From positions 186,001 through 250,000 of the forward strand of contig PLCN01000017.1 of the NCBI GenBank assembly GCA_003134785.1: a stretch of 64,000 bases of DNA, written 5' to 3'. Under the pieces are notes generated by a model. That model did not search any database, was not told the origin of the DNA, and worked only from the letters and a program-made list of their open reading frames with translations. The position numbers were made by a program, and so were the translations under genes. The stretch comes from Spartobacteria bacterium (GTDB taxonomy: Bacteria; Verrucomicrobiota; Verrucomicrobiia; Chthoniobacterales; UBA10450). Positions 46,304 to 64,000 of the stretch are shown piece by piece (positions within the stretch are counted from its first letter, which is position 1; the number at the start of each line of letters is the position of its first letter).

Positions 46304-46368
46304 GTAAGCAATACGTGCGAGATACGATGGAAGGCTGCAATTGATTCGACGCGCGTATTTTGCAGGTT

Positions 46369-46519
46369 GGGGAGCGCAGGCTGCCAGCCTGCAGTTCGCG
46401 GCAGCTTGCCGCGAACATGAAAACCGTGAATAGAAGGGCAACGGCGATTATAGTCCGGCCCCGCAAAAGATGCGCCCGGCAAGCTGCCGGGCGCGGCAGG
46501 CTGGCAGCCTGCGCTCCCC
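46369..46519. repeat. Composite palindrome with GGGGAGCGC ends, copy 4
   Basis: The outer arms are the same as in copies 1 and 3. The inner hairpins are TTCGCGGCAGCTTGCCGCGA and CCCGGCAAGCTGCCGGG. It overlaps the false upstream extension of the topoisomerase frame. Confidence 0.9.
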
Positions 46520-46530
46520 AACAACACCAG

Positions 46531-46974
46531 CTACGCGCCGTAGCTCTTGGTAAATTTCTTGCGGGATTCGGATTCGGTCGGAGGAACCTCGGGGGCGTCA
46601 GTCTTTTCCGCGGCCGCAGAAGCTTCTGCCGCCGCCGGAGTCTCAGCCTTGGCCTCCGGTTGTGGCGGCGAAGCGGCCACACTTCCCCCCTTCGTTTGCT
46701 GCGACACTTCCACAAACGCCATCTGGAGATTCGAGAGCGTGTTCCTTAACACGGCCGATTCCTCGTTCGTCAAATTGCCACGCGTCTTCTCCTGAATCAT
46801 CGCGAGCTGATCGATGAACATCTTGGCCAGTTCCAGGTTGACCTCTCCCTGCCCGGTTTGCGGGTTCGGGATCTGCCCGAGAAACAGCGCGGCGTTTTGC
46901 GCCTGCATCATAACGAATTCAATGAAGCGTTGGGACAACTCCCCGCTTTGCGTGTTGGTCTGCACCTCGGCCAT
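46531..46974 (-). CDS. DUF1844 domain protein
   Basis: A protein of 147 residues. The DUF1844 core is seen in the first 90 residues: SQRFIEFVMMQAQNAALFLG, then VNLELAKMFIDQLAMIQEKT and EESAVLRNTLSNLQMAFVEV, a three-helix layout. The last 50 residues are Ala/Pro/Glu-rich and low in complexity. No function is known for this family, which is frequent in Verrucomicrobia, Planctomycetes and Acidobacteria. It stands between two dispersed repeats. Confidence 0.82.
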   Translation of the reverse strand: MAEVQTNTQSGELSQRFIEFVMMQAQNAALFLGQIPNPQTGQGEVNLELAKMFIDQLAMIQEKTRGNLTNEESAVLRNTLSNLQMAFVEVSQQTKGGSVAASPPQPEAKAETPAAAEASAAAEKTDAPEVPPTESESRKKFTKSYGA

Positions 46975-46987
46975 AACTTATCAGTAA

Positions 46988-47022
46988 TCGATCACGAGCA
47001 GGAGCACGAGCACGATTACGAC
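46988..47022. repeat. CACGAG-rich dispersed repeat
   Basis: It reads CGATCACGAGCAGGAGCACG then AGCACGATTACGA. A short inverted fragment ACTCGTGATCGTAA follows near 47046. It lies just upstream of the DUF1844 gene start. Confidence 0.8.
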
Positions 47023-47076
47023 TCGAGTTGACGTTTTCCGACACTTACTCGTGATCGTAAGCCCAATCGCTCTGCC

Positions 47077-49653: not shown

Positions 49654-49690
49654 TCAAGCAGGCAGGAGCGCCCTGATCGGCGCCGTTAAT

Positions 49691-50125
49691 TCATGACAAC
49701 TTCGGCGCGGGCAGACTGCGCGGTGCCTCGGACTTCGAACGCTTTTCCGGCTCGAATGGTTTCACAAAAGCTTCCTGAAAATCAAAGACGTTCTTGAAAT
49801 CTTCAATCGAATCATCCTCCGTCTTCCCGAAAATGCCGGCGCCGATCAGGTTGAAAACCATGTGCCCCACGTCTTCGCACGACTTGATCCCCCAGTACGA
49901 CAGGACCGTCATCACCATCGGCCCGAATTCCTTCAGCGCATATTGGCGGACGCCTTCGAGCAGCTCAGGTCCTGCGACGTGGCGGACTGAAGCGCCCTTC
50001 GTCTTTTTCTGCTGCTTGGTCGTGTAATCGAGCGCATCGCGCAGAAAAACGTAAGCATCGCGCTGATAGCGCGGATCGCCGGCCACGATGGAATCAAGAG
50101 CTTCCGCGAATCCTATTTTTTGCAT
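49691..50125 (-). CDS. Minf_1886-type conserved protein
   Basis: A protein of 144 residues from the ATG at 50125 (MQKIGFAEALDSIVAGDPRY). Conserved-looking stretches are YQRDAYVFLRDALDYTTKQQ, HVAGPELLEGVRQYALKEFG and SCEDVGHMVFNLIGAGIFGK. This pattern matches a protein family named after a Methylacidiphilum infernorum gene and found mainly in the PVC group; the match is from memory of the pattern, not a search. No catalytic motif is visible. A frame extension to 50194 is rejected. Confidence 0.72.
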   Translation of the reverse strand: MQKIGFAEALDSIVAGDPRYQRDAYVFLRDALDYTTKQQKKTKGASVRHVAGPELLEGVRQYALKEFGPMVMTVLSYWGIKSCEDVGHMVFNLIGAGIFGKTEDDSIEDFKNVFDFQEAFVKPFEPEKRSKSEAPRSLPAPKLS

Positions 50126-50317
50126 GTGTGAACGCCCGTCTCGCGAGCGCCGCCTATGATACGCAACAACGATCGAGCGAGCAACTCTTGCCACTCAACC
50201 GGCGAGCGCGAGAAATTGCATCCGGCATCGGGCAAATATTCTTGACGCGAAAAACGATCCTGTTAGAGATGCGGCGGTCGCCGGACAATCAACCAAGCCG
50301 GCGACCGGTTCCCCCCC

Positions 50318-53300
50318 ATGAAAAAATTCTCGTCATTCGGCGTCATTGTCGCCCTCCTTGTCTCCGCGGCGCTGCTTCAGACCGCAGCAGCGCAAAACAT
50401 CGGCACGGCTTTGGTCAACGGCGCGCCGCAGATCAATAGCGGGACCGTTGACGGCAACTTGCAGCAGATGACGGGCGCGAACGTGACGCTCAACGGCGGC
50501 GGGGTCATTACCGGCGATCTGCTGGTCCCGGGCACACCGGCTCTAATCAAAAATGGCCAATACACTTTGGGCGGCGTCATCGTGGGCACGGGCAGCACCT
50601 CGCCTTCCAACTACCAGGTCATCCTCAACGGGACCGTGCGTCTCGGTCATCTCCGCACCCGCACTAATCCAATCGCGATTCCGGCGCTGCCGGCGGTGCC
50701 GTCACCCACCGGCACGCGCACGGTCACGATCACGGCCGCGGGACAAAGCGCCGGCAGTTTCTCGACGCTGCGCAATTTCACGCTGAACGGGAATGTGGGC
50801 CAATACACGGTGCCACCCGGAATGTACGGTGATTTCATCGCGAATGGCGGGGCCGGTTTCACGCTCGGCGTGGCCGGTTCAACGCAGCCCGCAGTTTACA
50901 ATCTGCAACATCTTACCCTGAACGGTGCGACCAAGATCGTGGTGGTCGGGCCAGTGGTCCTTAATGTCGCAAACGGTTTCACCGCGAACGGCACCGCCGG
51001 CACTTCCACCAATCCCGCCTGGCTCAAACTCAACATCGTTGCGGGTGGTTTCACCGTAAATGGCGGCTGCACGCTTTATGGATACGCCACGGTGCCGAGT
51101 GGAACGCTCATTATTAATGGCGCGGCGAAACTGATTGGCGGCGCGAGCTGCAACGCCTTGACCGTAAACGCGAATGGTCTCTTGCAGTTGTTCGACGCCG
51201 CGAGTTTCGAGAATAAGCCTCCAACGGTCGCGATCACGAATCCCGCGGCGGGCACCGTGTTCAACGCGGGCAACGCCATCACTCTCACCGCCAGCGCGAC
51301 CGACACCGACGGTTCGGTTTCCAAAGTAGAATTCTTTGCCGGTGCCGCCAAGCTGGGTGAAGCGACTTCCTCGCCCTGGACTTACGTGTGGCAAAATGCG
51401 GCAGCGGGCTCCTACCAGTTGACCGCAATCGCCACCGACAACCTGGGCGCAAAAACTACCTCAAGCGCCGTGCCGATCACCGTGAATGCGCCACCCACGG
51501 TCGCGCTAACCGCTCCGGCAAACCAGAGCGTCTTTCAGTCGGGCAGTGTGATCTCACTTAGTGCTAATGCCGGGGATAGCGACGGCACAGTTCAGAAGGT
51601 GGAGTTCTTCGCTGACGGCGTGAAACTCGGCGAGAAGACGACGACCCCTTACTCTTTTTCCTGGACTAACGCTCTCGCGGGTCCGCACGCGCTCACCGCA
51701 CGGGCCACCGACAATAATAGCGCGCAGACTGTTTCCATGACGGTCAACATTCGGGTGAATGCCGCGCCTTCCGCGACCATGAACGCGCCCGCGAACGGAA
51801 GCGTCGCGCAGCTAGGCAGCGTGATCGCGCTGGCGGCGACCGCGAGCGATAGCGACGGAACGATCGCCAAAGTGGAGTTCTACGCGGGTGCCACAAAAGT
51901 GGGCGAAGACACGACCGCGCCTTATCAATTCAACTGGAGCAATGCACCGGCCGGCCATTACTCGCTCACCGCGCGGGCGATCGACAACGATGGCGCCCAA
52001 GGCACGTCGTCACCGATTAACCTTACCGTGAACGCGCCGCCCACGGTCGCCATCACTGCTCCCGCCCCGGCTCAGGTTTTTAATCCGGGCGTCACCATTT
52101 CGATCACGACGAGCCCGAGCGATTCCGACGGAACGGTGACGAAAGTCGAATTCTTCGCCGGCTCGAATAAGATCGGTGAAGCGGGCACCGCGCCGTGGAC
52201 GATTTCCTGGCCGGCTCCCGCGCCCGGAGTGTATCAGCTTTCCGCGGTGGCCACCGACGATCTCGGAGCGCACACCACTTCGTCCATCGTTTCGATCGGG
52301 ATCAACGCTCCGCCCACCGTGGCGATTGCTTCACCATCGGATCAAGCCGTCGTGCAACCCGGCAATCCAATCGCGATCACCGCAAATGCCAGCGACAGCG
52401 ACGGTACGATCGCGAAAGTAGAATTCTTCGCCGGTGCTACTAAGCTGGGTGAGAGTTCCTCTGCGCCTTTCACTTTCTTCTGGAGCAACGCGATCTCCGG
52501 CAGCTACACCATCACGGCGAAGGCGACCGACAATGCTACCGCATCCGCCGTCTCCGCGCCGATTCTTTTGCGGGTAAACGCACTACCCGCGGTCGCGCTT
52601 ACCGCTCCGGCGCAAGGCGCGACCTTCAGGGCCGCCGACGCGATCCCGATCAGCGCGAACGCGTCTGACTCCGACGATGGCATTACGAAAGTGGAGTTCT
52701 TCGCCGGAGGCGCCAAGATCGGCGAAGCGGGCGTGGCGCCTTATGCCATTAATTGGATGGGCGCTCCAGAAAGAGCGAGCACATTAACGGCGCGCGCGAC
52801 CGATGGTTCCGGCGCGAGCGCAACGTCCGCGGCGGTGACGATCAATGTCACCAGAATTAACACTCAGCTGACAGTTGATGCCGGTCCGGACAGACTGATC
52901 TCACTGCCGGGCGGAGCAACGCTCGAGGGTCAGGTGCTGTTGAATGGAGGGACGCCCGGCCCCGAGGTCACGCTTCAGTGGTCGCTGGTGAGCGGGCCAG
53001 GTGCCGTCACCCTCTCCGCGCCGAATTCTACATCCAGCTCCGCGAGTTTCACGCAAGCCGGTAACTACATTATCCGTCTCACTGCATCCAATGCTGACGG
53101 CGCCAACTTCGACACGACAGCGGTCACCGTTCTTTCCGCGCCACAACCTGATCCCGACTCCTTTGTTTCAAATCGAGGCCGCGAATTCTGGATGGCATTC
53201 CTTTCCAATCCTGCCGGCTCCGAACCCGCCTATGCTGGGAGGAACCTAAACATTACCTCTGAGACCGCCGCCACGGGCACGGTGGAAATTTTCAACTCCG

Positions 53301-56300
53301 TCGTGATCGATGGAAATCTGCAGGTTTCTCGGGAGGTAAAGACTTTTTCCGTCGCAGCGGGTGGCAAAACGGTAGTCGATGTGACTACCGGCTTCGCACC
53401 GGATTACCGGGGCGAATACGATCAGGTGCGGCCCAGTGCCATCCACATCGTGGCCGACGCTCCGGTCGCGGTGCACGCGTTGAACTACATGCACGCGTCG
53501 ACCGACGGAAGTCTTATCCTGCCGACGTCGCTCCTGGGCCTGGACCACTTCGTCATGGCCTATTGGAATGGAGAAACGAGCGCGAGAGTGGGAACTGAGT
53601 TAGCCATTGTGGCGACGAAGCCGCAGACGCTGGTAACCATCACCCCTACGTCCGCCACCGGCTCGCATCCGGCGGGTCAACCCTTTACTGTTACGCTTCA
53701 GACCGGAGACGTCTTCCGGCTGATTAGCATGCACGACGGAGAAGATCTCACGGGGTCACGAGTGCAGGCGGACAAGCCGGTCGCGGTCTTCGGCGGCCAC
53801 AGCCTTGCCTACGTCCCCTACAACGTTCCCTACGCCGACCACCTCTACGAGCAGATGCCATCGGTCGATCTTTGGGGCCGCCACTTCGTTACCATCCCGC
53901 TCAAGGGCCGGACCGGTGGCGACCTCCTTCGCGCGCTGGCTTCGGACGATAACACTCATGTTTCGATCAACGGTGAGATCGTCGCGACGCTTAACCGCGG
54001 CCAGTTTTATGAAACCGTCCTGACCCAGCCGGCTTATATCCTCGCCGATCAACACATCCTGCTCGCCCAGTTCGCCCAGGGTACGGAACTCGATCACACC
54101 ACGGGTGATCCTTTCCTTTCCATCGTTCCGCCTTACGAGACCTTCGGGCGGCATTACAGCATGCCCACCCCCTACTATCGGAACTATGACTTCGCGCACA
54201 ATACCTACGTCGTCTCCGATATCTACGACAGCTACCTCAGCCTTATTGTCGATTCCGCGCATGCCGCGGCGGTTACCGTCAACGGCCAGACCATTGACTC
54301 AGCTCAGTTTTTCCCAATCGCGGATAGCGGCTTCTCGGGCGCATCCATCGCGGTGCAGAAGAATTCCACATTGGATATTTCCTCGCCCACTCCGGTTGGG
54401 ACGCTGCTCTATGGCTGGGCCCCTTTCGAATCCTACGGCTACACTGGCGGACTGTATGGAGCCATGGATAATGCCTCCGCTCAGCTCCAACTAACTCAAT
54501 CTTCCGTCGCAGCTCCTGTCGGCAGCACTCATCGGGTCACGGCTTCTCTACTTGGTGTCACCGGCCTCCCGGTTCCAGATGCCCTGGTAACTTTCTCGGT
54601 TACTGGAGCAAATCCCACCACTGGTTCGGGCTTAACCTCACCGGACGGGACCGTTGAATTTTCCTGGCAAGGCCCTCAGGTGGGAAGTGACACGGTAACA
54701 GCCAGCGCGGGTGCGCGAACGGCTACGATCAATGTAACTTGGGTAGCAGCGGGCGCCAATCAACCTCCGCAAGTTAACGCGGGTCCCGATGTGGTCCTGA
54801 AACTAGGTCAGCCGCTCACGCTTCATGGAGTAGCACAAGATGATGGTATACCCGCCGGCCAGGGACTGACGGTGTTATGGTCCGCGCTCAGCGGGCTCGG
54901 CGACGTCAGCTTTAGCAATGCGTCAGCCACCGATACCATCGCCACCTTCCTTTACCCTGGAAAATACCGGATCCGGCTGACGGCTTACGACGGCCAGTTC
55001 CCGGGCGACGATGACCTATCGGTGCTGGTGGATATCCCGCCGCAATTCAAATTCGATATGCTCGTGCCCTCAGAGAATGTGGTTGATTTGGGCAAAGAGT
55101 GGACCCTTGGAGTAACAGCCGAGGACAAGGATGGAGTCATCGCCAGGATTGAGCTAATCGACGGGAATCAAGTCCTGGGCACGTTGGAGCCGAACGAAGC
55201 TCAAGTCTTCTACTATTGGACATCCTTCTCTACCGTCTTCGACACGGTTGGGACGCACACCCTCATAGTCCGGTTGATTGATGATCTGGGGATCACGGAG
55301 GAACGATCGATCAGTGTAGTCGTCCGACCAGTGCCCACGGTCCAGATTCTCACTCCCGCCAGCAACGTTACTTTGGCGGCGGGCGGTTCGGTCACCTTTA
55401 CCGCCAGTGCCAGCAGCACGGGCGGATCGATTACCCGCGTCGCCTACACTGACGTTACTGATTACTATCCGTTCGAGATTGGAGACGGCACCAGATCGAA
55501 CTACGAGTTTGATTGGACGCCGAGCTATGCTGGCGCTCGCCAGATTACCGCTGTGGCTTATGACAGCAACGGCGCCTCCGCGACATCCGCCGCCGTTATC
55601 ATCGATGTGCTATCACCAGGTAATTCCACGGTTACCATCACAAGCCCCCAGGATGGCACCTCCATCTACCCGGGGGCGACCATGACGTTGCACGCGGATG
55701 TTTCGGCCGTCTTCCCGGCTGAGGTTAATGAAGTCGATTTTGTCGATGGCTCTCAATACCTCGGCTCGAAGTATTCCCCGCCGTTTGAAGTGCAATGGTC
55801 ACCGTCTACGGTCGAGTCGCACACTCTCACCGCGTACGTTTACGATAGTTTCGGCGGCTATGCGGAGACATCGATCACCATCAATGTCGTCCCGATCCCG
55901 CCGCTAAGTGTGACGCTGGCTCAGCCGCAGCCAACCCTTCCGGTTAAGGTCAACAGTCCAACCACTCTCGCGGCAGCGATTGAAAACGTCATCGGCACCT
56001 TGCAAGATATTTCTTTTTACGTGGACGGCCAATGGCTTGATGGTGGAACTAACGGTAGTGCTATCTGGACGCCAACGACGATCGGAGTTCATGAGATCGA
56101 CATCTACGCCTTCAGCCTCAATCCATACCAGGACGGTTACGCTGTCGCTAATATTACCGTCGCCGACCTTCACTCGCCGTTCGTCCAATTCACCGCGCCA
56201 GCGAATAACTCGACTTCGCCGCCCGGCACTCCCATCGTCCTGCAAGCTCAAACCAGCGACGTCGACTCAAACCTGGCCAAGCTTCAACTCCTGGCTGACG

Positions 56301-58936
56301 GGCAACTTCTCTCGGAAACGCCACTCTCTGGCGGCGCAGGCGTCGCCAGCTTCACCTGGGATAATGCTGGCCCCGGCTGGCACGCCCTCAGCGCGCTCGC
56401 CGTCGATGACACAGCCAAAAACGGCAATGCTTCCCTGCGTGTTTTCGTTGAACGCTCCGTAACGAATGACCTCCTTCCGCCTTCTGCCTTAACCAGTGAG
56501 GCGATGTCGCCAACTAGCATTCACTTAACCTGGGCTCCCTCGACTTCAACAAACGCGACCTGCACCGCGATTGAGCGGCGTGCGGGGGTTGATGGCGCTT
56601 GGACGGAAATTGCTACGGTCGAGCAAACGCTCGCATCCTTCGACGACAGCAGCCTTGAATCCGAGACCTATTACAGCTATCGCCTCGCCTCGCTCAACGC
56701 TTCGGGCTCCCGCTCCACTTACTCCGCGGAAAGCTCAGCCACGACTTTCGTGGAGATGCCGACCTACGCCGTCATCGATATTACAGAAAGCCTGGCGCAA
56801 AGCGGGATCGCCGCGCGGTTCTTTGACTTCAAACATCTCATCGCCTCGAATGCCACCGCTGGAGCCGGTAACCCGGTCGAACTCCAAGGCACACGTGCAT
56901 TGTCCGTCAACGACAACGGCCAAGTCCTGGTGGATTCAGGCAGTGGCAACTACACCGTCTGGAGCTTCCAGGGATCACCTCAGCCCTTGAGCAAAGGTGC
57001 GGAGCCAATTGTCGCTCGGGCAATCAATGCGCAAGGTGTAGTCGCCGGCTCGAGCGATCATTCCTACCAAGACTCGGACAATAACGTGCATCTGGAGTTT
57101 CGCGCGCAAACGTGGACCGGCGGCCCAATCAACGAAATCACGCCTCACGATTCGCTCGGCGATTATCACGAACCGCGGGGCGGACCAATGCGCGGATTGG
57201 GCGACTACGAAGTATTCGAAGCTTATGGGATTGCCGATTCCGGCGACGTTGCTGGCCGCGCCAGCGTCTATTACCGCGACTACGATTACAGTGCTCAGCA
57301 CGCTGCGTTATGGTCAGGTAGCCAGTGGACCAACCTGGGCGGCTTTGAATGGGTCAGCGATCATCGCGGGCGGATGCTGCCAAGCTATGCCACAGGAGTG
57401 AATGGCAACAACCAGGTTGTTGGCGTCGGCGCGATCGATTTACCCCAGCTCCCCAGCTACCCACCCGGAACAGGCCCGCAGCACGCGTTCTTAAGCAACG
57501 GTCGAAACTGGGATGCTCCGGGTCGAACATTTCAGGATTTGGGAACTCTGGGCGGCTACGAGAGTGCTGCTTGGGACATCAACGCAAATGACTTTATCAT
57601 CGGGGTCTCAACGAAACAACAGGACGATCCGCTCTGGCGCGTTTCTGGCTTTGTTTGGGAAGGAAGCGCTCCGATGCAAGAACTCCCGACTCTTGGCGGC
57701 ACAAATTCAAACTACCCGACTGGCTATAGTTACCCGATCGCCATCAACAATCGAAACCAGATCGTCGGTCAATCGCTGCGCGTCGACCACAGCACCGTCG
57801 CTTCTCTCTGGCAAGAGAATCAGAACAATGGCGCTCCGCCGAACACACAACCTCGCTACGAGCCAGCCGATCTCAACGATTTGGTCGGTAGCTATAGAGA
57901 TTGGTTTCTGGTGAGCGCCCGAGATATCAGCAATACAGGCCTAATCGTCGGCCAAGGAATTCGTTACACCCGCGATAGCCAGGGCCAGATAGTAGGTCAG
58001 CAAGAGAAGGCATATCTGCTGGTGCCAATCGATATACGCACAATTGCTCCCGCCCATAACGGGGTTTTTGCACGTTGCGAAGATGTTCAATTATCCGCGA
58101 GTGTCACTGGGCAGGGCAAAGATTTCGTTTCACGCGTCGAGTATTGGGCCAACGGAGAAAAGGTTGCTGAAGCCACTCAAGGGGGGGGCTGGACGGCAGT
58201 GTGGAGCAAACCTCAACCGGGATATTACGACATAGTTGCACGGGCTGTCCTCAACATTGGCTCGTCCTATGTTGAAGCTCCTTCCATTATGGTCTTGGGA
58301 CTTCCGATTTCTCGTGCCTCGATGAAAGCAATGCTCAATTACGAGGTCGGCGGCGGCAAATCTTATTATGACGCCAAACTAAAGGATCCTACGTGGCCGA
58401 AGGGCAAGAGCGGAGTGACCATCGGAGTTGGATACGACTTGGGCTACAATACTGCGGCGGAAATTCGTCGAGACTGGCAGCAGTATCTTACACCGGAACA
58501 ACTAGATCGACTTGCAGCGTTAGCCGGCTTGAAGAAAACCATCGCGCGGGATCGAGTTCAATCTGTCCAGGACATTGATATTCCTTGGGAGTCCGCCATC
58601 AAAGTATTCGAATCAGTAACCTTACCGCGGTTCATCGCCGCGACACTGAGCATATATAGCAACGCAGATCAACTGAATGCGGACAGCTTTGGCGCATTAG
58701 TTTCCCTCGTCTTTAACCGTGGCACCGATCTAGCAGGCGATCGCCGACTAGAAATGGCAGAGATTGCATCGGCACTGGGGCGGGGGGATACAGCCGCCGT
58801 GCCGCAGCTTATTCGAGATATGAAACGCATTTGGGAGGGCGATCCTGATTCCCGAGGTTTGTTAACGCGGCGCGACGAAGAAGCCCGGCTTTTTCAAATG
58901 GGTCTAAATGAGGGTTCGAACCCGTGCGGTAATTAA
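50318..58936 (+). CDS. Giant secreted multi-Ig/IgGFc/HAF protein with C-terminal muramidase
   Basis: 2872 residues. A signal peptide (FGVIVALLVSAALLQTAAAQ) is followed by: a Gly/Asn-rich beta region (27-300); six tandem Ig-like repeats of about 91 residues (301-846), each with DSDGTIAKVEFFAGATKLGE-type sequence; a PKD-like domain (847-941); an IgGFc-binding-type domain (about 949-1387, starting NRGREFWMAFLSNP); an invasin-type Ig domain (1405-1478); a PKD/REJ-like domain; five more Ig-like domains; an FN3 domain (2049-2146); HAF-type repeats (2148-2568, QDLGTLGGYESAAWDINAND); another Ig-like domain; and a pesticin-like lysozyme domain from about 2662. In the last, E2676, T2701 and D2707 sit in NYEVGGG and GVTIGVGYDLGY, a spacing close to that of pesticin. 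It is probably a cell-surface or released adhesin that delivers a wall hydrolase. No sorting motif is seen. Confidence 0.88.
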   Translation: MKKFSSFGVIVALLVSAALLQTAAAQNIGTALVNGAPQINSGTVDGNLQQMTGANVTLNGGGVITGDLLVPGTPALIKNGQYTLGGVIVGTGSTSPSNYQVILNGTVRLGHLRTRTNPIAIPALPAVPSPTGTRTVTITAAGQSAGSFSTLRNFTLNGNVGQYTVPPGMYGDFIANGGAGFTLGVAGSTQPAVYNLQHLTLNGATKIVVVGPVVLNVANGFTANGTAGTSTNPAWLKLNIVAGGFTVNGGCTLYGYATVPSGTLIINGAAKLIGGASCNALTVNANGLLQLFDAASFENKPPTVAITNPAAGTVFNAGNAITLTASATDTDGSVSKVEFFAGAAKLGEATSSPWTYVWQNAAAGSYQLTAIATDNLGAKTTSSAVPITVNAPPTVALTAPANQSVFQSGSVISLSANAGDSDGTVQKVEFFADGVKLGEKTTTPYSFSWTNALAGPHALTARATDNNSAQTVSMTVNIRVNAAPSATMNAPANGSVAQLGSVIALAATASDSDGTIAKVEFYAGATKVGEDTTAPYQFNWSNAPAGHYSLTARAIDNDGAQGTSSPINLTVNAPPTVAITAPAPAQVFNPGVTISITTSPSDSDGTVTKVEFFAGSNKIGEAGTAPWTISWPAPAPGVYQLSAVATDDLGAHTTSSIVSIGINAPPTVAIASPSDQAVVQPGNPIAITANASDSDGTIAKVEFFAGATKLGESSSAPFTFFWSNAISGSYTITAKATDNATASAVSAPILLRVNALPAVALTAPAQGATFRAADAIPISANASDSDDGITKVEFFAGGAKIGEAGVAPYAINWMGAPERASTLTARATDGSGASATSAAVTINVTRINTQLTVDAGPDRLISLPGGATLEGQVLLNGGTPGPEVTLQWSLVSGPGAVTLSAPNSTSSSASFTQAGNYIIRLTASNADGANFDTTAVTVLSAPQPDPDSFVSNRGREFWMAFLSNPAGSEPAYAGRNLNITSETAATGTVEIFNSVVIDGNLQVSREVKTFSVAAGGKTVVDVTTGFAPDYRGEYDQVRPSAIHIVADAPVAVHALNYMHASTDGSLILPTSLLGLDHFVMAYWNGETSARVGTELAIVATKPQTLVTITPTSATGSHPAGQPFTVTLQTGDVFRLISMHDGEDLTGSRVQADKPVAVFGGHSLAYVPYNVPYADHLYEQMPSVDLWGRHFVTIPLKGRTGGDLLRALASDDNTHVSINGEIVATLNRGQFYETVLTQPAYILADQHILLAQFAQGTELDHTTGDPFLSIVPPYETFGRHYSMPTPYYRNYDFAHNTYVVSDIYDSYLSLIVDSAHAAAVTVNGQTIDSAQFFPIADSGFSGASIAVQKNSTLDISSPTPVGTLLYGWAPFESYGYTGGLYGAMDNASAQLQLTQSSVAAPVGSTHRVTASLLGVTGLPVPDALVTFSVTGANPTTGSGLTSPDGTVEFSWQGPQVGSDTVTASAGARTATINVTWVAAGANQPPQVNAGPDVVLKLGQPLTLHGVAQDDGIPAGQGLTVLWSALSGLGDVSFSNASATDTIATFLYPGKYRIRLTAYDGQFPGDDDLSVLVDIPPQFKFDMLVPSENVVDLGKEWTLGVTAEDKDGVIARIELIDGNQVLGTLEPNEAQVFYYWTSFSTVFDTVGTHTLIVRLIDDLGITEERSISVVVRPVPTVQILTPASNVTLAAGGSVTFTASASSTGGSITRVAYTDVTDYYPFEIGDGTRSNYEFDWTPSYAGARQITAVAYDSNGASATSAAVIIDVLSPGNSTVTITSPQDGTSIYPGATMTLHADVSAVFPAEVNEVDFVDGSQYLGSKYSPPFEVQWSPSTVESHTLTAYVYDSFGGYAETSITINVVPIPPLSVTLAQPQPTLPVKVNSPTTLAAAIENVIGTLQDISFYVDGQWLDGGTNGSAIWTPTTIGVHEIDIYAFSLNPYQDGYAVANITVADLHSPFVQFTAPANNSTSPPGTPIVLQAQTSDVDSNLAKLQLLADGQLLSETPLSGGAGVASFTWDNAGPGWHALSALAVDDTAKNGNASLRVFVERSVTNDLLPPSALTSEAMSPTSIHLTWAPSTSTNATCTAIERRAGVDGAWTEIATVEQTLASFDDSSLESETYYSYRLASLNASGSRSTYSAESSATTFVEMPTYAVIDITESLAQSGIAARFFDFKHLIASNATAGAGNPVELQGTRALSVNDNGQVLVDSGSGNYTVWSFQGSPQPLSKGAEPIVARAINAQGVVAGSSDHSYQDSDNNVHLEFRAQTWTGGPINEITPHDSLGDYHEPRGGPMRGLGDYEVFEAYGIADSGDVAGRASVYYRDYDYSAQHAALWSGSQWTNLGGFEWVSDHRGRMLPSYATGVNGNNQVVGVGAIDLPQLPSYPPGTGPQHAFLSNGRNWDAPGRTFQDLGTLGGYESAAWDINANDFIIGVSTKQQDDPLWRVSGFVWEGSAPMQELPTLGGTNSNYPTGYSYPIAINNRNQIVGQSLRVDHSTVASLWQENQNNGAPPNTQPRYEPADLNDLVGSYRDWFLVSARDISNTGLIVGQGIRYTRDSQGQIVGQQEKAYLLVPIDIRTIAPAHNGVFARCEDVQLSASVTGQGKDFVSRVEYWANGEKVAEATQGGGWTAVWSKPQPGYYDIVARAVLNIGSSYVEAPSIMVLGLPISRASMKAMLNYEVGGGKSYYDAKLKDPTWPKGKSGVTIGVGYDLGYNTAAEIRRDWQQYLTPEQLDRLAALAGLKKTIARDRVQSVQDIDIPWESAIKVFESVTLPRFIAATLSIYSNADQLNADSFGALVSLVFNRGTDLAGDRRLEMAEIASALGRGDTAAVPQLIRDMKRIWEGDPDSRGLLTRRDEEARLFQMGLNEGSNPCGN

Positions 58937-58950
58937 TCACATAAAAATAA

Positions 58951-59382
58951 ATGAAACGAAAAAGCATCTGCTCGCTAACTATGTTTATCTTTGTAGGTTT
59001 ATCGAGTTTGGCCGACACTCTGCCATCGTACATTGGAAATTACGCTTGGCGTAGCGACGACAATGGCGTGGCCCAATCCGTCAGAACTGCTATAAGTCAA
59101 CAAAACGGGTCAACCACGATCAATACTTCACTGACTTGGATTCCCGGCGCGGCCGTCGAAATACAGGCAACAGTAACGTCGGATCACGTACGGACCGTTG
59201 TTATCGACTCCCGGGATTGCACGGAGATCACTTTCTCGTTTAGTGATAGCTTCAAGAACGAGGGAGTTGCTAAGCTTGTCCTCTGCGGCGACACAGCAGA
59301 CTTGACTCTTGACGAGACAACCATGGTCGAACCGCGAGCTGTCCGGCAATACGGAGACTATCACCTCACTCGGCAGCCGTAG
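58951..59382 (+). CDS. Small exported protein next to the muramidase gene (candidate immunity partner)
   Basis: A protein of 143 residues starting 14 bases after the giant gene, with an N-terminal signal peptide (SICSLTMFIFVGLSSLADT). The mature part is beta-rich (GSTTINTSLTWIPGAAVEIQ; VRTVVIDSRDCTEITFSFSD) with two cysteines that could form a disulfide. No family is recognised. The position directly after a lysozyme-domain gene, the export signal and the small size suggest that it shields the producer's own wall. The same frame continues after two stop codons into an LprI-type domain (next entry), so this may be the first part of a broken inhibitor. Confidence 0.62.
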   Translation: MKRKSICSLTMFIFVGLSSLADTLPSYIGNYAWRSDDNGVAQSVRTAISQQNGSTTINTSLTWIPGAAVEIQATVTSDHVRTVVIDSRDCTEITFSFSDSFKNEGVAKLVLCGDTADLTLDETTMVEPRAVRQYGDYHLTRQP

Positions 59383-59394
59383 AGTAGCTGAGTC

Positions 59395-59664
59395 TTGTTC
59401 GAACTACGCAATCGCAAGCTTGTGGGTCTAAATACCGTGTACAAAGCGGCCCTGGCCACTCGAAGCGAGAAAGGTGTCGCGGCGCTCAGGGAAGCGCAAC
59501 GCGCCTGGATAACTTATCGCGACGCGGCAGCAGAAGCTTATGGCACTGGCGAAGAGGGCGACTCGCTAGAAGCACTGATGGTTCTGCGCTGCTCAGAAGC
59601 GCTGACCAAGGATCGGACAGCAGAATTGAAGAAGTTGTACTTGTCAGATCACTACCCATATTGA
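59395..59664 (+). pseudogene. LprI/DUF1311 lysozyme-inhibitor domain, N-terminally truncated
   Basis: 89 residues from a TTG. The DUF1311 core is clear: LNTVYKAALATRSEKGVAAL then REAQRAWITYRDAAAEAYG and a Cys in VLRCSEALTKDRTAEL. Full-length family members start with a Cys-containing C-x-AxTQxEMN segment before this point, and that segment is missing. The frame is the same as that of the preceding gene and is separated from it only by TAG and TGA codons (59380-59391). It is either a coupled second cistron with a weak start, or the back half of a gene broken by nonsense mutations. LprI-type proteins inhibit lysozymes in other bacteria. Confidence 0.6.
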
Positions 59665-59793
59665 CATGAACCACCCAGCCAGACGATGAAGTGAACTCCG
59701 AAAGAATTTGCGAGCAGGCTGGTACCCGCCTGCGCGATCCGGTTCCCATGACTAAGACACTTCCACTTCGATTGACGCGCGCTCCCACCAGCC

Positions 59794-59820
59794 ATCGCTG
59801 ATCTTATTCTCGTTAGGCGT
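59794..59820 (+). other. attC-like right half-site before the first cassette gene
   Basis: ATCGCTGATCTTATTCTCGT then TAGGCGT closely matches TCGCTGATCTTGGGTCTCGT then TAGGCGT at 60704. It ends in the R' core GTTAGGC (59812-59818). The left half (R'' and L'') could not be found in the 140 bases upstream. The 215 bases between 59665 and 59879 hold no gene. Confidence 0.5.
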
Positions 59821-59879
59821 CGCTACGCGCACACCGAGAATTTCCACGCAGTGAACAACCATCAAATTAGGAGAACAAC

Positions 59880-60626
59880 ATGAAAATCGTCGTCATCGGC
59901 GGCACTGGACGTATCGGCACCAAAGTCGTAAAGAACCTTCGCGACAAGGGCCATGAGGTCGTGGCCGCCTCACCTTCGAAGGGAATCAACTCAGTCACCG
60001 GCGAGGGACTGGCGCAAGCGCTTGCCGGCGCTCAGGTACTCGTGGATGTCGCGAATGCACCCTCCTGGGAGGACAAGGCAGTCCTGGAGTTTTTCGAAAC
60101 GTCGGGTCGCAACCTCCTGGCCGCGGAAGCCGCCGCGGGCGTCGGCCATCATGTGGCGTTGTCGGTTGTCGGCACCGACCGCTTGCTCGCGAGCGGTTAC
60201 TTCCGCGCGAAGATGGCTCAGGAAAATCTGATCAAGGCTTCCCCGATTCCTTACACGATCGTCCGCGCCACGCAGTTCCTCGAGTTCGTGGGCGGCATCG
60301 CCCAATCGGCGACTGAAGGACAAACGGTTCGGCTTCCACCGGTTCTGATGCAGCCCATTGTGTCGGATGATGTTGCCGCCGTCATGGCCGAAGCGGCCCT
60401 CGCGGAGCCATTGAACGGCACGGTCGATCTGGCCGGTCCCGAACCGATCCGTCAAGACGACCTCGTGCGGCAATTCCTGAGCGCAACCGGGGACGCACGG
60501 ACGGTAATCACCGATCCCAAGGCGCTCTATTTCGGCATAGCAGTGAACGACCAAAGCCTAACGCCTGGCGACAATCCACGTCTCGGTCCGACGCGTTTCG
60601 CGGACTGGCTCAGCCGCAACGCCTAA
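59880..60626 (+). CDS. NAD(P)-binding NmrA/SDR-type protein (cassette-like gene)
   Basis: A protein of 248 residues with an N-terminal Rossmann motif (KIVVIGGTGRIGTKVV) and an atypical-SDR layout: VDVANAPSWEDKAVLEFFET, then HHVALSVVGTDRLLASGYFR, YTIVRATQFLEFVGG and a C-terminal DLAGPEPIRQDDLVRQFLSA. It is a probable NAD(P)H-dependent oxidoreductase or redox sensor of the YwnB/NmrA kind; the substrate is unknown. A good Shine-Dalgarno (TTAGGAGAACAAC) precedes the ATG. The TAA stop lies inside the R'' core of the attC-like site that follows, as is common for integron cassettes. Confidence 0.85.
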   Translation: MKIVVIGGTGRIGTKVVKNLRDKGHEVVAASPSKGINSVTGEGLAQALAGAQVLVDVANAPSWEDKAVLEFFETSGRNLLAAEAAAGVGHHVALSVVGTDRLLASGYFRAKMAQENLIKASPIPYTIVRATQFLEFVGGIAQSATEGQTVRLPPVLMQPIVSDDVAAVMAEAALAEPLNGTVDLAGPEPIRQDDLVRQFLSATGDARTVITDPKALYFGIAVNDQSLTPGDNPRLGPTRFADWLSRNA

Positions 60627-60727
60627 CCAAGCTGCAGCGAACCGCGGCCTGTCCTTATGTCTAGCGCTGACTGTCTCATGAAGTCACTTGTCACTCGCGC
60701 GGTCGCTGATCTTGGGTCTCGTTAGGC
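60621..60727 (+). other. Complete attC-like recombination site
   Basis: R'' GCCTAAC at 60621-60627 and R' GTTAGGC at 60721-60727 are exact complements. Inside, L'' CAGCGAACCGCG (60635-60646) pairs with L' CGCGGTCGCTG (60698-60708) with a single unpaired A, like the extrahelical base that attC sites need. The length of 107 bases is within the attC range. The spacers between R and L are uneven (7 and 12 bases), which is unusual. Confidence 0.62.
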
Positions 60728-60736
60728 GTAACTCGC

Positions 60737-61069
60737 ATGATCGGGTCCGATGACGTAGAGAAAGCGATCAACGACGGTTCAATCTATCGACAGACGCCGC
60801 AAGTTTGGCAAGAGATGTTGGCAGCCACGACACGGATCTCCGGTCACAATCCTACGCTTGTGCACCGAATGAATCAGGCCGCAGAGCTTCTCAGACATCT
60901 ATTACGCTCTCACGAGAGCGAGCAGCAGCTAGCGCGCGCGTCCGCAAAAGCACGCGAGCAGCATAATGCGGTATTCACGATTGGTTCACGAACGCTTCGT
61001 TGGACGATTATAGCGGCAGTCGCCGCAGTGATAGGCGCTGTTGCCGCGATCATTGCGATCTTCCGATGA
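60737..61069 (+). CDS. Hypothetical tail-anchored membrane protein (cassette-like gene)
   Basis: A protein of 110 residues starting ten bases after an attC-like R' core. The N-terminal 85 residues are charged and helical (DVEKAINDGSIYRQTPQVWQ; HRMNQAAELLRHLLRSHESE). One C-terminal span (WTIIAAVAAVIGAVAAIIAI) then ends at the last Arg. No family is recognised. The size, unknown function and tight placement between recombination-like sites fit a mobile gene cassette. Confidence 0.65.
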   Translation: MIGSDDVEKAINDGSIYRQTPQVWQEMLAATTRISGHNPTLVHRMNQAAELLRHLLRSHESEQQLARASAKAREQHNAVFTIGSRTLRWTIIAAVAAVIGAVAAIIAIFR

Positions 61070-61111
61070 CTCGGATACTTTTTCCGGATGCCACGCCAAG
61101 GTCTAACCCCT

Positions 61112-61480
61112 ATGTAGGGAGTCAAGCGCGGATGTAAGGTTTGGGTTGGTTTTAGTTCATTGTTTTTTTGGATGGGTTAGTGGTTTGATTCAATCTTGGG
61201 AGCGCTTCCTCTTCCTTTTGCTCGTTGGGTTGTTGTTCCAGCGGCTCTTACTCCTATCCGTGCATCTCACCGTGGCGAGAGCACCATTTGATCAATGCGA
61301 TCGGTGGAAGAGGAACTTGAGGTGGCCCAATCTAGGGCGTCGAACAAGGACGTTTAACCTGATCAGGTTAGATGGCAGGCGCACCTCACGTTCCAAAGTG
61401 GATGTTGGTTTAGCTTAAAGTTTCGTTAGGCTAGGCCGGTGCGGCTCGCACTCCTTTGTGTTCCCCTCAAACTCATAAGT
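61112..61480 (-). ncRNA. Candidate guide (bridge/seek) RNA region of the IS element
   Basis: A non-coding 3' end of about 370 bases beyond the transposase stop. IS110-group elements encode a structured guide RNA in their long non-coding end, which lies downstream of the transposase in the IS1111 subgroup. The stretch holds GTTTAACCTGATCAGGTTAG (61360-61380) and TTCGTTAGGC (61422-61431), both like the attC cores of the target; these could be guide loops. No RNA boundaries can be set by eye. Confidence 0.4.
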
Positions 61481-62578
61481 TTAAATGCTGAGGCCAAGCT
61501 GCTCTGGGCTGAGCCGGCTGGTGCGGATGCGCCACAGATCGACCGCCAGTTGCCGGGCCACGGCTACGATTGCTTTCTTGCGCGCAGCGCCGGTAGCCAG
61601 CGCTCCTTTGGCCAGGACCCTTCTCCATTTCACTACCGCTTTGTACTCAGGCTGGAAGCGGACCAGCCGCCAGGCCAGCTCCACCAGCGCCGCTCTCAAG
61701 CGCGGGTTCCCGTGCTTGGTCACGCAGGTCTGGACCCGGGTCTTGGCGCTGGAGTATTCTCCGGGACATAAACCGGTGTAGCTCCCAACCTGGCGGCGAT
61801 TGTTAAACCGGCTCCAGTTCCCAATCTCGCGATCGATCACCACACTGGTCATGGCCCCAACTCCGCGCGGTTGCCCTGGAGCGGCGGCTGATTGGAGTTG
61901 CACGCTCAAGGCGCGGATCTTTTCCTCCAGCGCCAGTAGGATCGGCTGCGTGTTCCCGAGCAATTCCTTCATCCACTCCGGCACTTCCAGCGCCGCAAAG
62001 GTGCGCCGCTTCCACCAGCTCTTCACTGGCTCGAGCCCGTCGTTCACCATCAGACTGCGCCCCTGCGCTTCCAACTGCTTGCGCGCTTTGACCAACTGTT
62101 CGCGCTGCCGATGAATGGCGCGCACTTGTTCTTCCTCCGGGGTGGGCACCCGCACCACCGCCAACGCCTCGCGATTACCTTCCACCAACCGATCCAACTT
62201 CAGGCACAGCGCCTTGGCATCGCGCCCATCGGTCTTCACCCGCTGGTTGCGCTCATCCAACTTCTGCGGACAGACCACGTAACACGCGATCCCCAGCCCC
62301 ATCAGTTGCCGCTGCAACCCAAACCCAAATCCGCACGCCTCATAAACGGCGTGGATCTCTGCCCCGCTCTTCTGCTGCCGGAGTCTGGCCGCCCAACTCA
62401 GGAACGCTTTCTTCTGGAAGCGCTGCGCTGGCTTCGGGTTGCCTCCTCCTTCCTGCACCACCACCACGTAAAACTCCTGGTGCACATCGATTCCAAGCTT
62501 GATTGCAACCGCGCGGGGATTAAACTCTCCGCGGGTTTCCTCGAGTGAGGACGACTCTACCTTTATGGTATTATTCAT
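61481..62578 (-). CDS. IS110 family transposase/recombinase
   Basis: A protein of 365 residues from the ATG at 62578. The N-terminal RuvC-like DEDD domain has KLGIDVHQEFYVVVVQEGG with Asp 31, then HAVYEACGFGFGLQRQLMGL and RVKTDGRDAKALCLKLDRL. The C-terminal Transposase_20 domain has GAMTSVVIDREIGNWSRFNN and SYTGLCPGEYSSAKTRVQTC, in which a Ser of EYSS is the expected nucleophile. It is full length and appears intact. A start at 62614 would lie in the terminal inverted repeat and is rejected. The protein cuts and joins DNA under RNA guidance in this family. Confidence 0.93.
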   Translation of the reverse strand: MNNTIKVESSSLEETRGEFNPRAVAIKLGIDVHQEFYVVVVQEGGGNPKPAQRFQKKAFLSWAARLRQQKSGAEIHAVYEACGFGFGLQRQLMGLGIACYVVCPQKLDERNQRVKTDGRDAKALCLKLDRLVEGNREALAVVRVPTPEEEQVRAIHRQREQLVKARKQLEAQGRSLMVNDGLEPVKSWWKRRTFAALEVPEWMKELLGNTQPILLALEEKIRALSVQLQSAAAPGQPRGVGAMTSVVIDREIGNWSRFNNRRQVGSYTGLCPGEYSSAKTRVQTCVTKHGNPRLRAALVELAWRLVRFQPEYKAVVKWRRVLAKGALATGAARKKAIVAVARQLAVDLWRIRTSRLSPEQLGLSI

Positions 62579-62685
62579 ATTGTCGGGTGTAGGTCCCAAA
62601 CCCGCACCCGACAACTCCCTTCATGTCATCTATGCGATACAGACAAGTGGTTAGGTCGGGTAGGATTCTGAGCTCGAGAAGGATC

Positions 62686-63042
62686 TCACTCGCCCCAGAT
62701 GGCGAACTCGCCGCCGCCGGGGGCTTCGAAGTGGAAGCGGCGGCCGCCGGGGAATTCGAATATCTCGCGGGTGATCTTTCCGCCGAGACGCGCGACTTCG
62801 GCGCTCATCTTTTCGAGCTCCGGATGATGAAAGACGATGAGTGGTGCGCCGGCAGCCGCGGTGCCGGTCTTTTCAGAAGCGAAGAAGCCGCCGGCCATGC
62901 GGCCGTCATCGAACGAGCAATAATCCGGGCCGTAATCCTGGAACGACCAACCGAAAAGTTTGGTGAAGAAATCCTTGGTGGCGGCGAGATCTGTTGAAGG
63001 CATCTCGATGTAGTCAATGGTGTTTGGAAGAGATTTGTGCAT
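62686..63042 (-). CDS. VOC-fold (glyoxalase/bleomycin-resistance-like) protein
   Basis: A protein of 118 residues with the beta-alpha-beta-beta-beta repeats of the VOC fold: IDYIEMPSTDLAATKDFFTK, LFGWSFQDYGPDYCSFDDG, then VFHHPELEKMSAEVARLGGK and a C-terminal GRRFHFEAPGGGEFAIWGE. The family includes metal enzymes and simple ligand binders; no metal triad is clear, so no reaction is given. It starts seven bases after the stop of the partial gene at the window end, on the same strand, so they may be cotranscribed. Confidence 0.85.
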   Translation of the reverse strand: MHKSLPNTIDYIEMPSTDLAATKDFFTKLFGWSFQDYGPDYCSFDDGRMAGGFFASEKTGTAAAGAPLIVFHHPELEKMSAEVARLGGKITREIFEFPGGRRFHFEAPGGGEFAIWGE

Positions 63043-63049
63043 GGCAGTT

Positions 63050-64000
63050 TCAATTCTGGAACTGCGTCTCGAGCGCGTCGAGATAAAGTGAGATGGGATC
63101 GCGCCTCGTTTGTTCCCGTTGCGTGGCCAGCTCGGCGGCGCGCATATAATCGTCGAAGGCGCCGCTTGGCCCGCGCGACTTGGTGGCCTCGAACCAATTC
63201 ATGTAATCGTCGATCCTTTGTCTTTGAAGAGCGACGCTTCGGCGCGCCAACTTCACGCCGGCCAGCCGTTCGGCGATTCGCTTTGTTTTTCCGCGGGCAA
63301 GCAGAGAGGCAATCTCGGCATATTCCAAAATGATGGGCTGATAAATCGGATTCGCGCGGGCCGAGAGGATGCTCAACTCCCGGCTGAGCGCGACGAGTGC
63401 AGGCTTGGCGGAAGCCATTCGAATGAAATTCGCGAACTCGTCGAATGAATACCGTTTTTCAGAGCCAGCGTTGGTGATCCTGAGAAGAAGCAATTCGTCC
63501 AGGGCTCGTTCCGTTTCTTCCGCGCCAAATAATTGACAGCCCTGGCTGGTCGCGAGTTGGGCGACAAACGCAGTCCACTCCTTCTCCGCGCTGCCGTTCG
63601 CGTCGAATAGTTCGGGGAAATGCAATCGAAGATCGGTCATCGGATCATTCGAGGCGGAAGGAAGATCTGAGATAAAGCGCGCGAGACGGTGACGCCCCTC
63701 GGGACCGTGAAGAAGAAACTCCACCAGTGCCATCGAATAGGCGCGATAGAGCGAGCGGCCGGGCGCGTCGAGAACATCGGAGCGCTGCCGCAAAAAATCT
63801 GCGAGCGAAAGAATCTTCTTCGCGCTCACCGGCGCGGCCAGAATATCAACCGCCGCGGATGATCCAGAATCCGCTTGCTGCGCCGGAACTCCATCGAGGA
63901 GCCAATCGGGCGGCGACACATAGGTTGTGCCCGCGGGAACATCGGGGTGGCCGCGGTACATTCTTTCCAGGAGAATCGTGCGAAGGATTTCGCGGCGGAG
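63050..64000 (-). CDS. Hypothetical protein, partial (5' end outside window)
   Basis: The frame is open from the right edge (317 codons, no stop before 63050). Near the edge it reads REILRTILLERMYRGHPDVP and VSPPDWLLDGVPAQQ, followed by an Ala-rich stretch. Then come SLADFLRQRSDVLDAPGRSL with YRAYSMALVEFLLHGPEGRH and RLARFISDLPSA. The order DWLLDG, LYRAYSMALVEFLL and FISDL resembles the C-terminal half of gluzincin-type membrane-associated peptidases, whose HExxH would lie upstream, outside the window. The end is helical (ALQRQRIDDYMNWFEATKSR). The family call is tentative. Confidence 0.6.
   Translation of the reverse strand, partial: LRREILRTILLERMYRGHPDVPAGTTYVSPPDWLLDGVPAQQADSGSSAAVDILAAPVSAKKILSLADFLRQRSDVLDAPGRSLYRAYSMALVEFLLHGPEGRHRLARFISDLPSASNDPMTDLRLHFPELFDANGSAEKEWTAFVAQLATSQGCQLFGAEETERALDELLLLRITNAGSEKRYSFDEFANFIRMASAKPALVALSRELSILSARANPIYQPIILEYAEIASLLARGKTKRIAERLAGVKLARRSVALQRQRIDDYMNWFEATKSRGPSGAFDDYMRAAELATQREQTRRDPISLYLDALETQFQN

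What the first reader, a model, noticed from the sequence alone, without database searches (positions are those of the whole stretch)
59794..61107. Integron-like gene cassettes without an integrase in the window
A complete attC-like site (60621-60727) has complementary GCCTAAC and GTTAGGC ends and inner boxes that pair with one extra base. It contains the stop codon of one gene and lies ten bases before the start of the next. The right half of a second site (59794-59820) shares about 23 of 26 bases with it. Both genes are short, on the same strand and of doubtful function. This fits a small cassette cluster (a CALIN) in a lineage where integrons are little studied.
Basis: partly seen in the sequence, partly recalled or inferred. 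Interest (0 to 1): 0.68.

Follow-up and report, generated by a model that had tools for sequence, protein, structure and literature searches.

The report
Stranded integron cassettes in a Verrucomicrobium
The window holds two real integron gene cassettes cut off from any working integrase, with a neighbouring site broken by a jumping element that targets such sites, in a group of soil bacteria whose chromosomes also carry many cassette docking sites with no integrase gene beside them.

Summary
The attC at 60621-60727 is real: a covariance model built without it scores it 57 bits and finds only one other site in the 64 kb, a decayed attC at 59694-59818 (29 bits) that contains the reported 'right half'. 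A third attC is split by an IS1111-type element (61109-62631). So this is a CALIN: two cassettes, no integrase nearby. The same MAG holds two integron-integrase genes on other contigs; both look broken, so the array is probably frozen. CALINs, IS1111 insertion into attC and integrons in Verrucomicrobiota are in print; the window itself is a new member of a known kind. The unexpected part lies outside it. A model built only from attI sites beside intI finds 55 attI sites in loci fetched from eight genomes of this genus; 47 show no intI within 3.5 kb or to the end of the fetched stretch, and 32 of the 47 are followed by an attC. In three of the eight genomes no intact intI was found. Sober reading: repeated loss of intI. 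Boldest reading: one IntI serving many dispersed attI platforms in trans.

The parts
59694..59818 (+). decayed attC (left end box lost, inner arms and right end box GTTAGGC kept)
   Evidence: R3 29.1 bits, E 3.9e-6; not a training site; R1 26.2 bits
59813..60721 (+). gene cassette 1, bounds inferred from the G/TT cleavage point of the two right end boxes
   Evidence: inference; cleavage rule recalled
59880..60626 (+). cassette 1 ORF, 248 aa, NAD(P)-binding NmrA-like oxidoreductase
   Evidence: Pfam NAD_binding_10 4e-13, NmrA 2e-9; stop codon inside the attC
60621..60727 (+). complete attC
   Evidence: R3 57.3 bits, E 2.3e-14, site not in the model; R1 84.3 bits (training site); DNA fold
60737..61069 (+). 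cassette 2 ORF, 110 aa, hydrophobic C-terminal stretch (by eye), no family
   Evidence: no Pfam, PADLOC or NCBIfam match at E<=0.001
61101..61108 (+). left end box GTCTAAC and next base of a third attC, cut by the IS
61109..62631 (-). IS1111-type insertion sequence, 1523 bp; 12-bp subterminal inverted repeats (10 of 12 alike) with 3-bp and 7-bp outer tails. Ends placed so that the flanks read as an intact attC
   Evidence: comparison of copies
61109..61480 (-). long noncoding end downstream of the transposase, candidate seekRNA/bridge RNA gene
   Evidence: position and similarity between copies; layout of the IS1111 family in PMC11187229 (passages)
61366..61373 (-). candidate target guide (RNA sense ATCTAACC), same sequence as an attC left end box plus one base
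   Evidence: two variable bases agree with the copy's own target in 5 of 6 IS copies; this copy is the one that differs, by one base
61481..62614 (-). IS110/IS1111 DEDD transposase, 377 aa
   Evidence: NF033542 192 bits over cut-off 140; Pfam Transposase_20, DEDD_Tnp_IS110
62632..62656 (+). truncated right remainder of the third attC, ending in GTTAGGT
   Evidence: inner arms missing, not found by R3
59395..59664 (+). LprI-family ORF directly upstream of the decayed attC, possibly an older cassette
   Evidence: Pfam LprI 2e-14; an ORF that looks alike by eye follows an attC at C3:86.8 kb (not aligned)

Best explanation
The locus is a CALIN: two gene cassettes placed in the chromosome by an integron integrase that recombined attC hairpins, and now stranded. 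Shown: one intact and one decayed attC, a third attC split by an IS1111-type element, two integrase genes elsewhere in the genome that carry a stop or a frameshift and truncation, and many more attC sites. Inferred: insertion by IntI in the past; freezing because both intI copies are dead and the last attC is destroyed; target choice by an RNA guide in the IS that resembles the left end box of attC. How the array arrived here (off-target insertion, or loss of a local intI and attI) is open, because no attI is left at its head.
For: attC model without the window site: 57.3 and 29.1 bits, the only two hits in 64 kb at E<=1. Stem covariation over nine own sites: 94.6% of cells paired, 11 cells with a change on both sides against 3.2 in shuffles, 0 of 500 as high; slid controls 0 to 2. 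DNA similarity to another site of the genome, 78% over 107 bases. R1 sites in 31 of 39 genomes, own included; the 8 without are order members G073, G076, G079, G081, G082, G083, G085 and G086, none of which is among the 49 of 117 genomes with an integrase match at E<=1e-60. Integrase 465 bits; an intact copy's nearest solved relative is 2a3v, deposited as IntI4, 321 bits. IS: IS110 RNA-guided transposase, 3/7-bp tails, noncoding end downstream of tnp, left end next to an attC-like left box in 8 of the 10 copies read.
Against: Nothing found contradicts attC identity. Weak points: 59694-59818 has lost its left box; the bottom strand folds only slightly better than the top one; the TGA in intI and the frameshift could be assembly errors of a MAG; no clean empty site was found, because the interval 50125-62690 is replaced by other genes in G007, the one relative in which both outer flanks were found. 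IntegronFinder's own model was not available. R1 was trained on this genome, so its scores for nine sites are high by construction.
Confidence: 0.9

Rival explanations
1. Distributed integron: this genus keeps many attI docking sites without an integrase gene around the chromosome, each heading its own cassette array, and one IntI (or one arriving from outside) works on all of them in trans. The window array would be one whose attI has decayed.
For: R2, built only from 11 attI sites that lie beside intI, finds 55 attI sites in 58 loci fetched from eight genus genomes; 47 have no intI of 90 bits or more within 3.5 kb or to the end of the fetched stretch; 32 of these 47 have an attC on the same strand within 1.5 kb downstream; over all 55, 40 have one downstream, 1 upstream, 1 on the other strand. 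On 32 named integrase loci R2 hits four, each 38-635 bp from intI. attI stems covary: 27 double changes against 6.9, 0 of 500. G003, G005 and G006 have 9, 10 and 25 R2 matches but no intact intI.
Against: No activity shown. Relics of intI lie beside several sites. The window itself has no attI (best 15.3 bits, E 0.05). 15 of 47 orphan sites have no attC within 1.5 kb. 13 of the 47 have under 3 kb of sequence on one side. The loci were mostly picked with a pattern taken from this motif, so the 47 are a selected sample. R2 match counts include both-strand copies of a near-palindromic site, and one weak match (E 0.0017) in G079, which has no attC by R1. Sliding the attI stem by -1 still gives 12 double changes. 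R2 found nothing in 28 of the 32 named loci.
Confidence: 0.3
2. Graveyard of whole integrons: each attI-headed array once had its own intI, which was deleted or decayed in place; arrays without attI, like the window, are simply older.
For: One neighbour gene (84-86% identity over 290 aa) is followed by intI and attI in G004, but by an attI without intI in G006 and by a site that fits the attI pattern but not R2 in G005. intI relics sit beside attI in G002, G007 and G006. Both own intI copies look broken. Widespread intI inactivation with stable arrays is described in Xanthomonas (PMC12444791, abstract and passages). Loss of a recognisable intI is one of three CALIN origins named in PMC8618304 (section 2.1).
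Against: Most orphan sites show no intI relic of 25 bits or more within the fetched stretch, the shared block is mostly only about 40-60 bp by eye, and attI and attC stay well conserved where intI has vanished. At the shared locus the three genomes carry different site variants.
Confidence: 0.45
3. Off-target insertion: the window cassettes were inserted at a non-attI site (attG) by IntI acting elsewhere in the genome.
For: No attI at the head of the window array; attG insertion is described in print (PMC12901181 and PMC12444791, passages).
Against: The array starts with a decayed attC, so an older, lost head is as likely; no empty site found.
Confidence: 0.3
4. Chance palindrome, not an attC.
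For: Imperfect palindromes made of short repeats occur, e.g. 19034-19195 in a box-only scan.
Against: Non-circular model score, covariation, gene context and many homologous sites.
Confidence: 0.01

Closest known systems
CALIN (cluster of attC sites lacking an integron-integrase)
   Same: attC-bounded short ORFs on one strand, no integrase nearby
   Different: only one intact attC is left; the third is split by an IS; the genome's own integrase genes look broken
IS1111 elements that target attC (ISKpn4, ISPst6, ISPa25)
   Same: DEDD transposase, subterminal repeats with 7/3-bp tails, noncoding end downstream of tnp, insertion at one end of attC, target-matching segment in the noncoding end (features from PMC11187229, passages)
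   Different: not compared with these three directly; the 12 best-listed plasmid relatives of the transposase are 29-35% identical; the candidate guide varies between copies with the target; the second, bottom-strand guide was not found
Sedentary chromosomal integron (intI, attI, array), for example that of Xanthomonas
   Same: IntI family, attI beside intI, attC arrays, intI inactivation
   Different: arrays and attI sites occur at many chromosomal places without intI
Delta-attI-type cassettes (attC replaced by attI)
   Same: show that attI pieces can move as IntI substrates (PMC12901181, passages)
   Different: there inside mobile class 1 and 2 integrons; here attI heads chromosomal arrays

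Membership tests
attC site | complementary RYYYAAC / GTTRRRY end boxes | tested here: met
   60621-60627 and 60721-60727; the left box is lost in 59694-59818. Definition recalled
attC site | inner arms that pair with an extrahelical base, spacer, variable terminal loop | tested here: met
   covarying inner stem over nine sites, conserved extra A. Definition recalled
attC site | recombined by IntI through the folded bottom strand | not testable with these tools
   needs an assay; folds of both strands only
CALIN | at least two attC close together | tested here: met
   59694-59818 and 60621-60727; the first is decayed
CALIN | no integrase nearby | tested here: met
   genome searches place both intI copies on other contigs, C10 and C22
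complete integron | intI and attI next to the array | tested here: not met
   no intI and no attI above 15.3 bits in the window
IS1111 group | subterminal inverted repeats of 11-13 bp with 7-bp and 3-bp tails | tested here: met
   12 bp, 10 of 12 alike, tails AGATGAC and CCT; the exact ends were placed so that the flanks read as an intact attC, so the tail lengths are consistent rather than independently measured
IS1111 group | long noncoding region downstream of tnp | tested here: met
   61109-61480
IS1111 elements that target attC | insertion into attC | tested here: met
   left end next to YCTAAC in 8 of 10 copies read, one base off in 1, unrelated in 1; one of the 8 (C9:4875) is a remnant of about 36 bases
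IS1111 elements that target attC | seekRNA with top- and bottom-strand target matches | tested here: inconclusive
   one candidate guide, 5 of 6 agree (P 12/720); no second guide found
attI site (orphan sites outside the window) | sequence of the attI found beside intI | tested here: met
   R2 from intI-adjacent sites only
attI site (orphan sites outside the window) | lies beside intI | tested here: not met
   47 of 55 sites have no intI within 3.5 kb or to the end of the fetched stretch
attI site (orphan sites outside the window) | accepts cassettes through IntI | not testable with these tools
   32 of 47 are followed by an attC, which is indirect

The most novel reading that the evidence does not exclude
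In this verrucomicrobial genus the integron is a distributed system: several to more than ten attI platforms without their own integrase stand around the chromosome, each collects cassettes, and a single IntI, sometimes supplied from outside the cell, feeds them in trans; RNA-guided IS1111 elements whose guides track attC variants prune the arrays.
Probability: 0.25. Interest if true: 0.8.

Novelty: new variant of a known kind. Interest (0 to 1): 0.5.

Why it matters
The window alone adds one more CALIN. Its genome and relatives give a tractable case for where CALINs come from; PMC8618304 (section 2.1) names off-target insertion, loss of intI, and rearrangement as proposed origins. Orphan attI sites that still head arrays in genomes where no intact intI was found help to separate those origins, and if they work in trans they change the idea that one integrase owns one attI. 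They also supply an attI model, which calling CALINs by attC alone does not use.

Tried and rejected
Rfam scan of 58500-64000: three sub-threshold matches, judged chance. A box-only attC scan gave false hits at 19034-19195, a run of short repeats. Empty-site test for the window: G007 has both outer flanks (window 45194-50125 and from 62690) but about 4.2 kb of unrelated genes between; of the other six genus genomes none showed both flanks in the stretch fetched; no empty site. A second, bottom-strand guide in the IS was looked for by eye in the aligned noncoding ends and not found. Of six IS loci fetched from relatives, only two (L168, L169) showed a left end with my pattern. Several attI-like pattern sites (e.g. 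C11:143358 and C22:17274 in this genome) lack the upstream half and were not among the R2 hits; they are not counted as attI. Rows dropped: from the 79, 22 opposite-strand copies of listed sites and the rows L241:4616 and L208:3529 (19.4 and 19.2 bits); from the 103, two rows (18.9 and 18.3 bits: an opposite-strand copy in L239 and one overlapping an attI in L224). Two of the eight intI-linked sites (L209, L210) were fetched because intI was there. The idea that the attI lies at the stop codon of an upstream gene was tested at 38 sites: an open frame of 100 codons or more ends there at 3, one being intI itself; not supported as a rule. One pair, own C22:17.3 kb and G007 C24:253 kb, has conserved flanks but a different local order, so it gives no clean empty site. 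The last literature search was swamped by words beginning with 'atti' such as attitude and is worthless.

Full report
What is there. The window is G000:C3:186001-250000 of a 4.39 Mb MAG in 25 contigs, 97% complete. At 60621-60727 lies a complete attC: end boxes GCCTAAC/GTTAGGC, inner arms AGCGA-A-CCGC/GCGG-TCGCT with one extra base. The ORF 59880-60626 ends inside the left box and the next ORF starts ten bases after the site. A covariance model built from nine other sites of the genome (R3) finds this site at 57.3 bits and finds only one more place in 64 kb at E<=1, 59694-59818 at 29.1 bits. That second place contains the reported right half and is a decayed attC with paired inner arms and no left box.

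Is it more than chance. In nine sites of this genome (A3, the window site included) 94.6% of the stem cells are standard pairs; 11 cells have a change on both sides against 3.2 in shuffles (0 of 500 as high), and sliding the partners by 1-3 columns leaves 0-2 such cells. The bottom strand folds at -24.8 kcal/mol against -17.0 +- 2.7 (0 of 200 shuffles as low); the top strand reaches -23.5 (1 of 200), so strand preference is not shown. The genome has 24 model R1 sites at E<=0.05 (nine are training sites; 150 of 1121 first-look candidates were scored). R1 finds sites in 31 of 39 genomes, own included; the eight without are order members G073, G076, G079, G081, G082, G083, G085 and G086, and none of these is among the 49 of 117 genomes with an integrase match at E<=1e-60.

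The integrase. The genome holds a clear integron integrase at C10:4543-5484 (465 bits, cut-off 265) with one in-frame TGA, and a truncated, frameshifted relative at C22; their start regions are 97.8% identical over 417 bp. Read through once for searching, it aligns with intact copies of relatives, and an intact copy's best solved relative is 2a3v, deposited as IntI4 (321 bits). 45 of 117 genomes, own included, have an integrase over the cut-off. The closest named record is a Verrucomicrobia MAG, AV37 (70% identity); the phylum of the window rests on that hit and on no other marker.

The third site. At 61101-61108 stands GTCTAACC, the left end of an attC; 1523 bp of insertion sequence follow, then a truncated right remainder ending in GTTAGGT (62650-62656). 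The transposase is IS110/IS1111 (NF033542 192 bits). Subterminal repeats of 12 bp (10 alike) with 3-bp and 7-bp tails, and a long noncoding end downstream of tnp, match what PMC11187229 gives for the IS1111 family (passages), where ISKpn4, ISPst6 and ISPa25 are said to target one end of attC. I placed the exact ends so that the flanks read as an intact attC, so the tails are consistent rather than measured. In this genome the left end of the element stands next to YCTAAC in 8 of 10 copies read, is one base off in one and unrelated in one; further places were not read. The noncoding end carries RYCTAACC in RNA sense. In six copies with a complete noncoding end (four here, two from relatives) the two variable bases agree with the copy's own target in five; a permutation gives 12/720. 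The copy in the window is the one that differs. The copies are related, so this is suggestive only; no second guide was found.

Cassette contents. Cassette 1 is an NmrA-like NAD(P)-binding protein and cassette 2 a 110-aa protein without family. Other cassettes of the genome include DUF4256, RibD_C, glyoxalase, cupin and a full-length ThsB-like TIR protein of the Thoeris defence family (401 bits) beside the truncated C22 integrase ('Thoeris' recalled).

Beyond the window: attI without intI. Two other arrays of this genome, at C3:85.6 kb and C4:287.5 kb, start with a sequence that resembles the attI found beside intI in relatives. I built a model, R2, only from 11 attI sites that lie beside intI (A4). 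On 32 named integrase loci (32 of the 80 fetched) it hits four at E<=0.01, each 38-635 bp from intI: AV37, a Gallionellaceae, a Pseudoduganella and a proteobacterial MAG; 28 had no hit. So what it finds is attI, but it misses most distant attI. R1 on the same loci hit 7 of 32. In 39 genomes, own included, R2 matches in 25 (counts include both-strand copies). One match is weak (G079, E 0.0017) in a genome without attC by R1, and four order members with intI (G075, G077, G078, G080) have none. In this genome it gives six matches: two beside the broken intI copies (one is a training site, the other identical) and four without, and each of these four is followed by an attC after 275-834 bp.

The genus sample. 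I fetched 58 loci from eight genus genomes; they hold 59 of the 61 sites of the pattern (the other two are beside the own intI), and two of them (L209, L210) were taken for their intI. The reversed pattern gave 0 matches in each of the eight genomes. R2 gives 55 attI sites in these loci; 47 have no intI of 90 bits or more within 3.5 kb or to the end of the stretch, and 13 of these 47 have less than 3 kb on one side. 32 of the 47 have an attC downstream on the same strand within 1.5 kb. Over all 55, 40 have one downstream, 1 upstream and 1 on the other strand. The stems covary across 26 sites (27 double changes against 6.9, 0 of 500; slid by -1 there are 12, otherwise 1-7). A family-specific profile finds no intI beyond Xer-like tails of 66-71 bits in G003, G013, G015 and G019, the same and one 56-bit tail in G005, one 51-residue piece in G006 and one 75-residue piece in G018 ('Xer-like' is my reading). 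R2 matches and R1 attC in these are: G003 9 and 14, G005 10 and 32, G006 25 and 36, G019 19 and 27, G018 2 and 8, G013 0 and 5, G015 0 and 1. These are MAGs, so an intI lost in a gap cannot be excluded for each, but it would have to be lost repeatedly.

How it most likely works. Shown: attC sites, intI copies with a stop or frameshift, IS insertion, attI sites without intI. Inferred: IntI placed the cassettes; with intI dead and the third attC destroyed the window array is frozen unless an integrase comes from outside. For the orphan attI, loss of a local intI is plausible at one locus, where the same neighbour gene is followed by intI and attI in G004, by an attI alone in G006, and by a pattern site that R2 does not score in G005; the three site variants differ. 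Use in trans is neither excluded nor shown. Movement of attI pieces by IntI has a precedent in delta-attI cassettes (PMC12901181, passages).

Novelty. CALINs, three proposed origins for them, and integrons in Verrucomicrobiota are in print (PMC8618304, section 2.1 read). IS1111 insertion into attC is in print (PMC11187229, passages; PMC11616780, passages, which also notes limited experimental evidence on its effects). intI inactivation with CALINs at several places is described in Xanthomonas (PMC12444791, abstract and passages). I saw no report of many attI sites without intI in one genome; the searches were those (listings), with passages of PMC12901181, PMC12444791 and PMC9892861, and one search was useless, so this is a weak statement. 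The window itself is a new member of a known kind; the variant claim rests on the orphan attI sites.

Noticed in passing
G000:C3:85632, C3:91607, C4:229392(-), C4:287526 (L167, L194, L166): attI-like sites heading cassette arrays with no integrase gene of 90 bits or more within 3.5 kb; at least one such site in each of the seven other genus genomes examined.
   Followed up: yes
G000:C22, L013:118-816 (-): A cassette of the array beside the truncated intI encodes a full-length ThsB-like TIR protein (PADLOC ThsB1, 401 bits).
   Followed up: partly
G002:C54 (L238, L239) and C20, C43: Large cassette arrays in a relative: 90 attC matches out of 90 candidates scored, so probably more.
   Followed up: no
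G004:C24:13924-14979 (L213): Integrase in the same direction as its cassettes with attI at its stop codon, unlike the divergent layout of this genome's intI.
   Followed up: partly
starts of contigs C10, C22 and C9 (L010, L013, L009): C10 and C22 begin with what looks by eye like half of an attC, and C9 begins 16 bases before an attC match, so assembly probably broke at these repeats and array lengths are lower bounds.
   Followed up: no
L009:2831-2848, L009:3558-3575, L166:9158-9175: A small palindrome CTCCGAAAG..TCGGAG recurs inside attC sites, and a similar one is seen by eye in IS noncoding ends; it may be a separate repeat element.
   Followed up: no
window 58951-59664: Two ORFs (143 aa, and 89 aa LprI family) between the 2872-aa gene and the decayed attC may be remains of older cassettes.
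   Followed up: partly
window 50125-62690: This interval is replaced by about 4.2 kb of other genes in the related genome G007 between conserved flanks: a variable chromosomal spot.
   Followed up: partly
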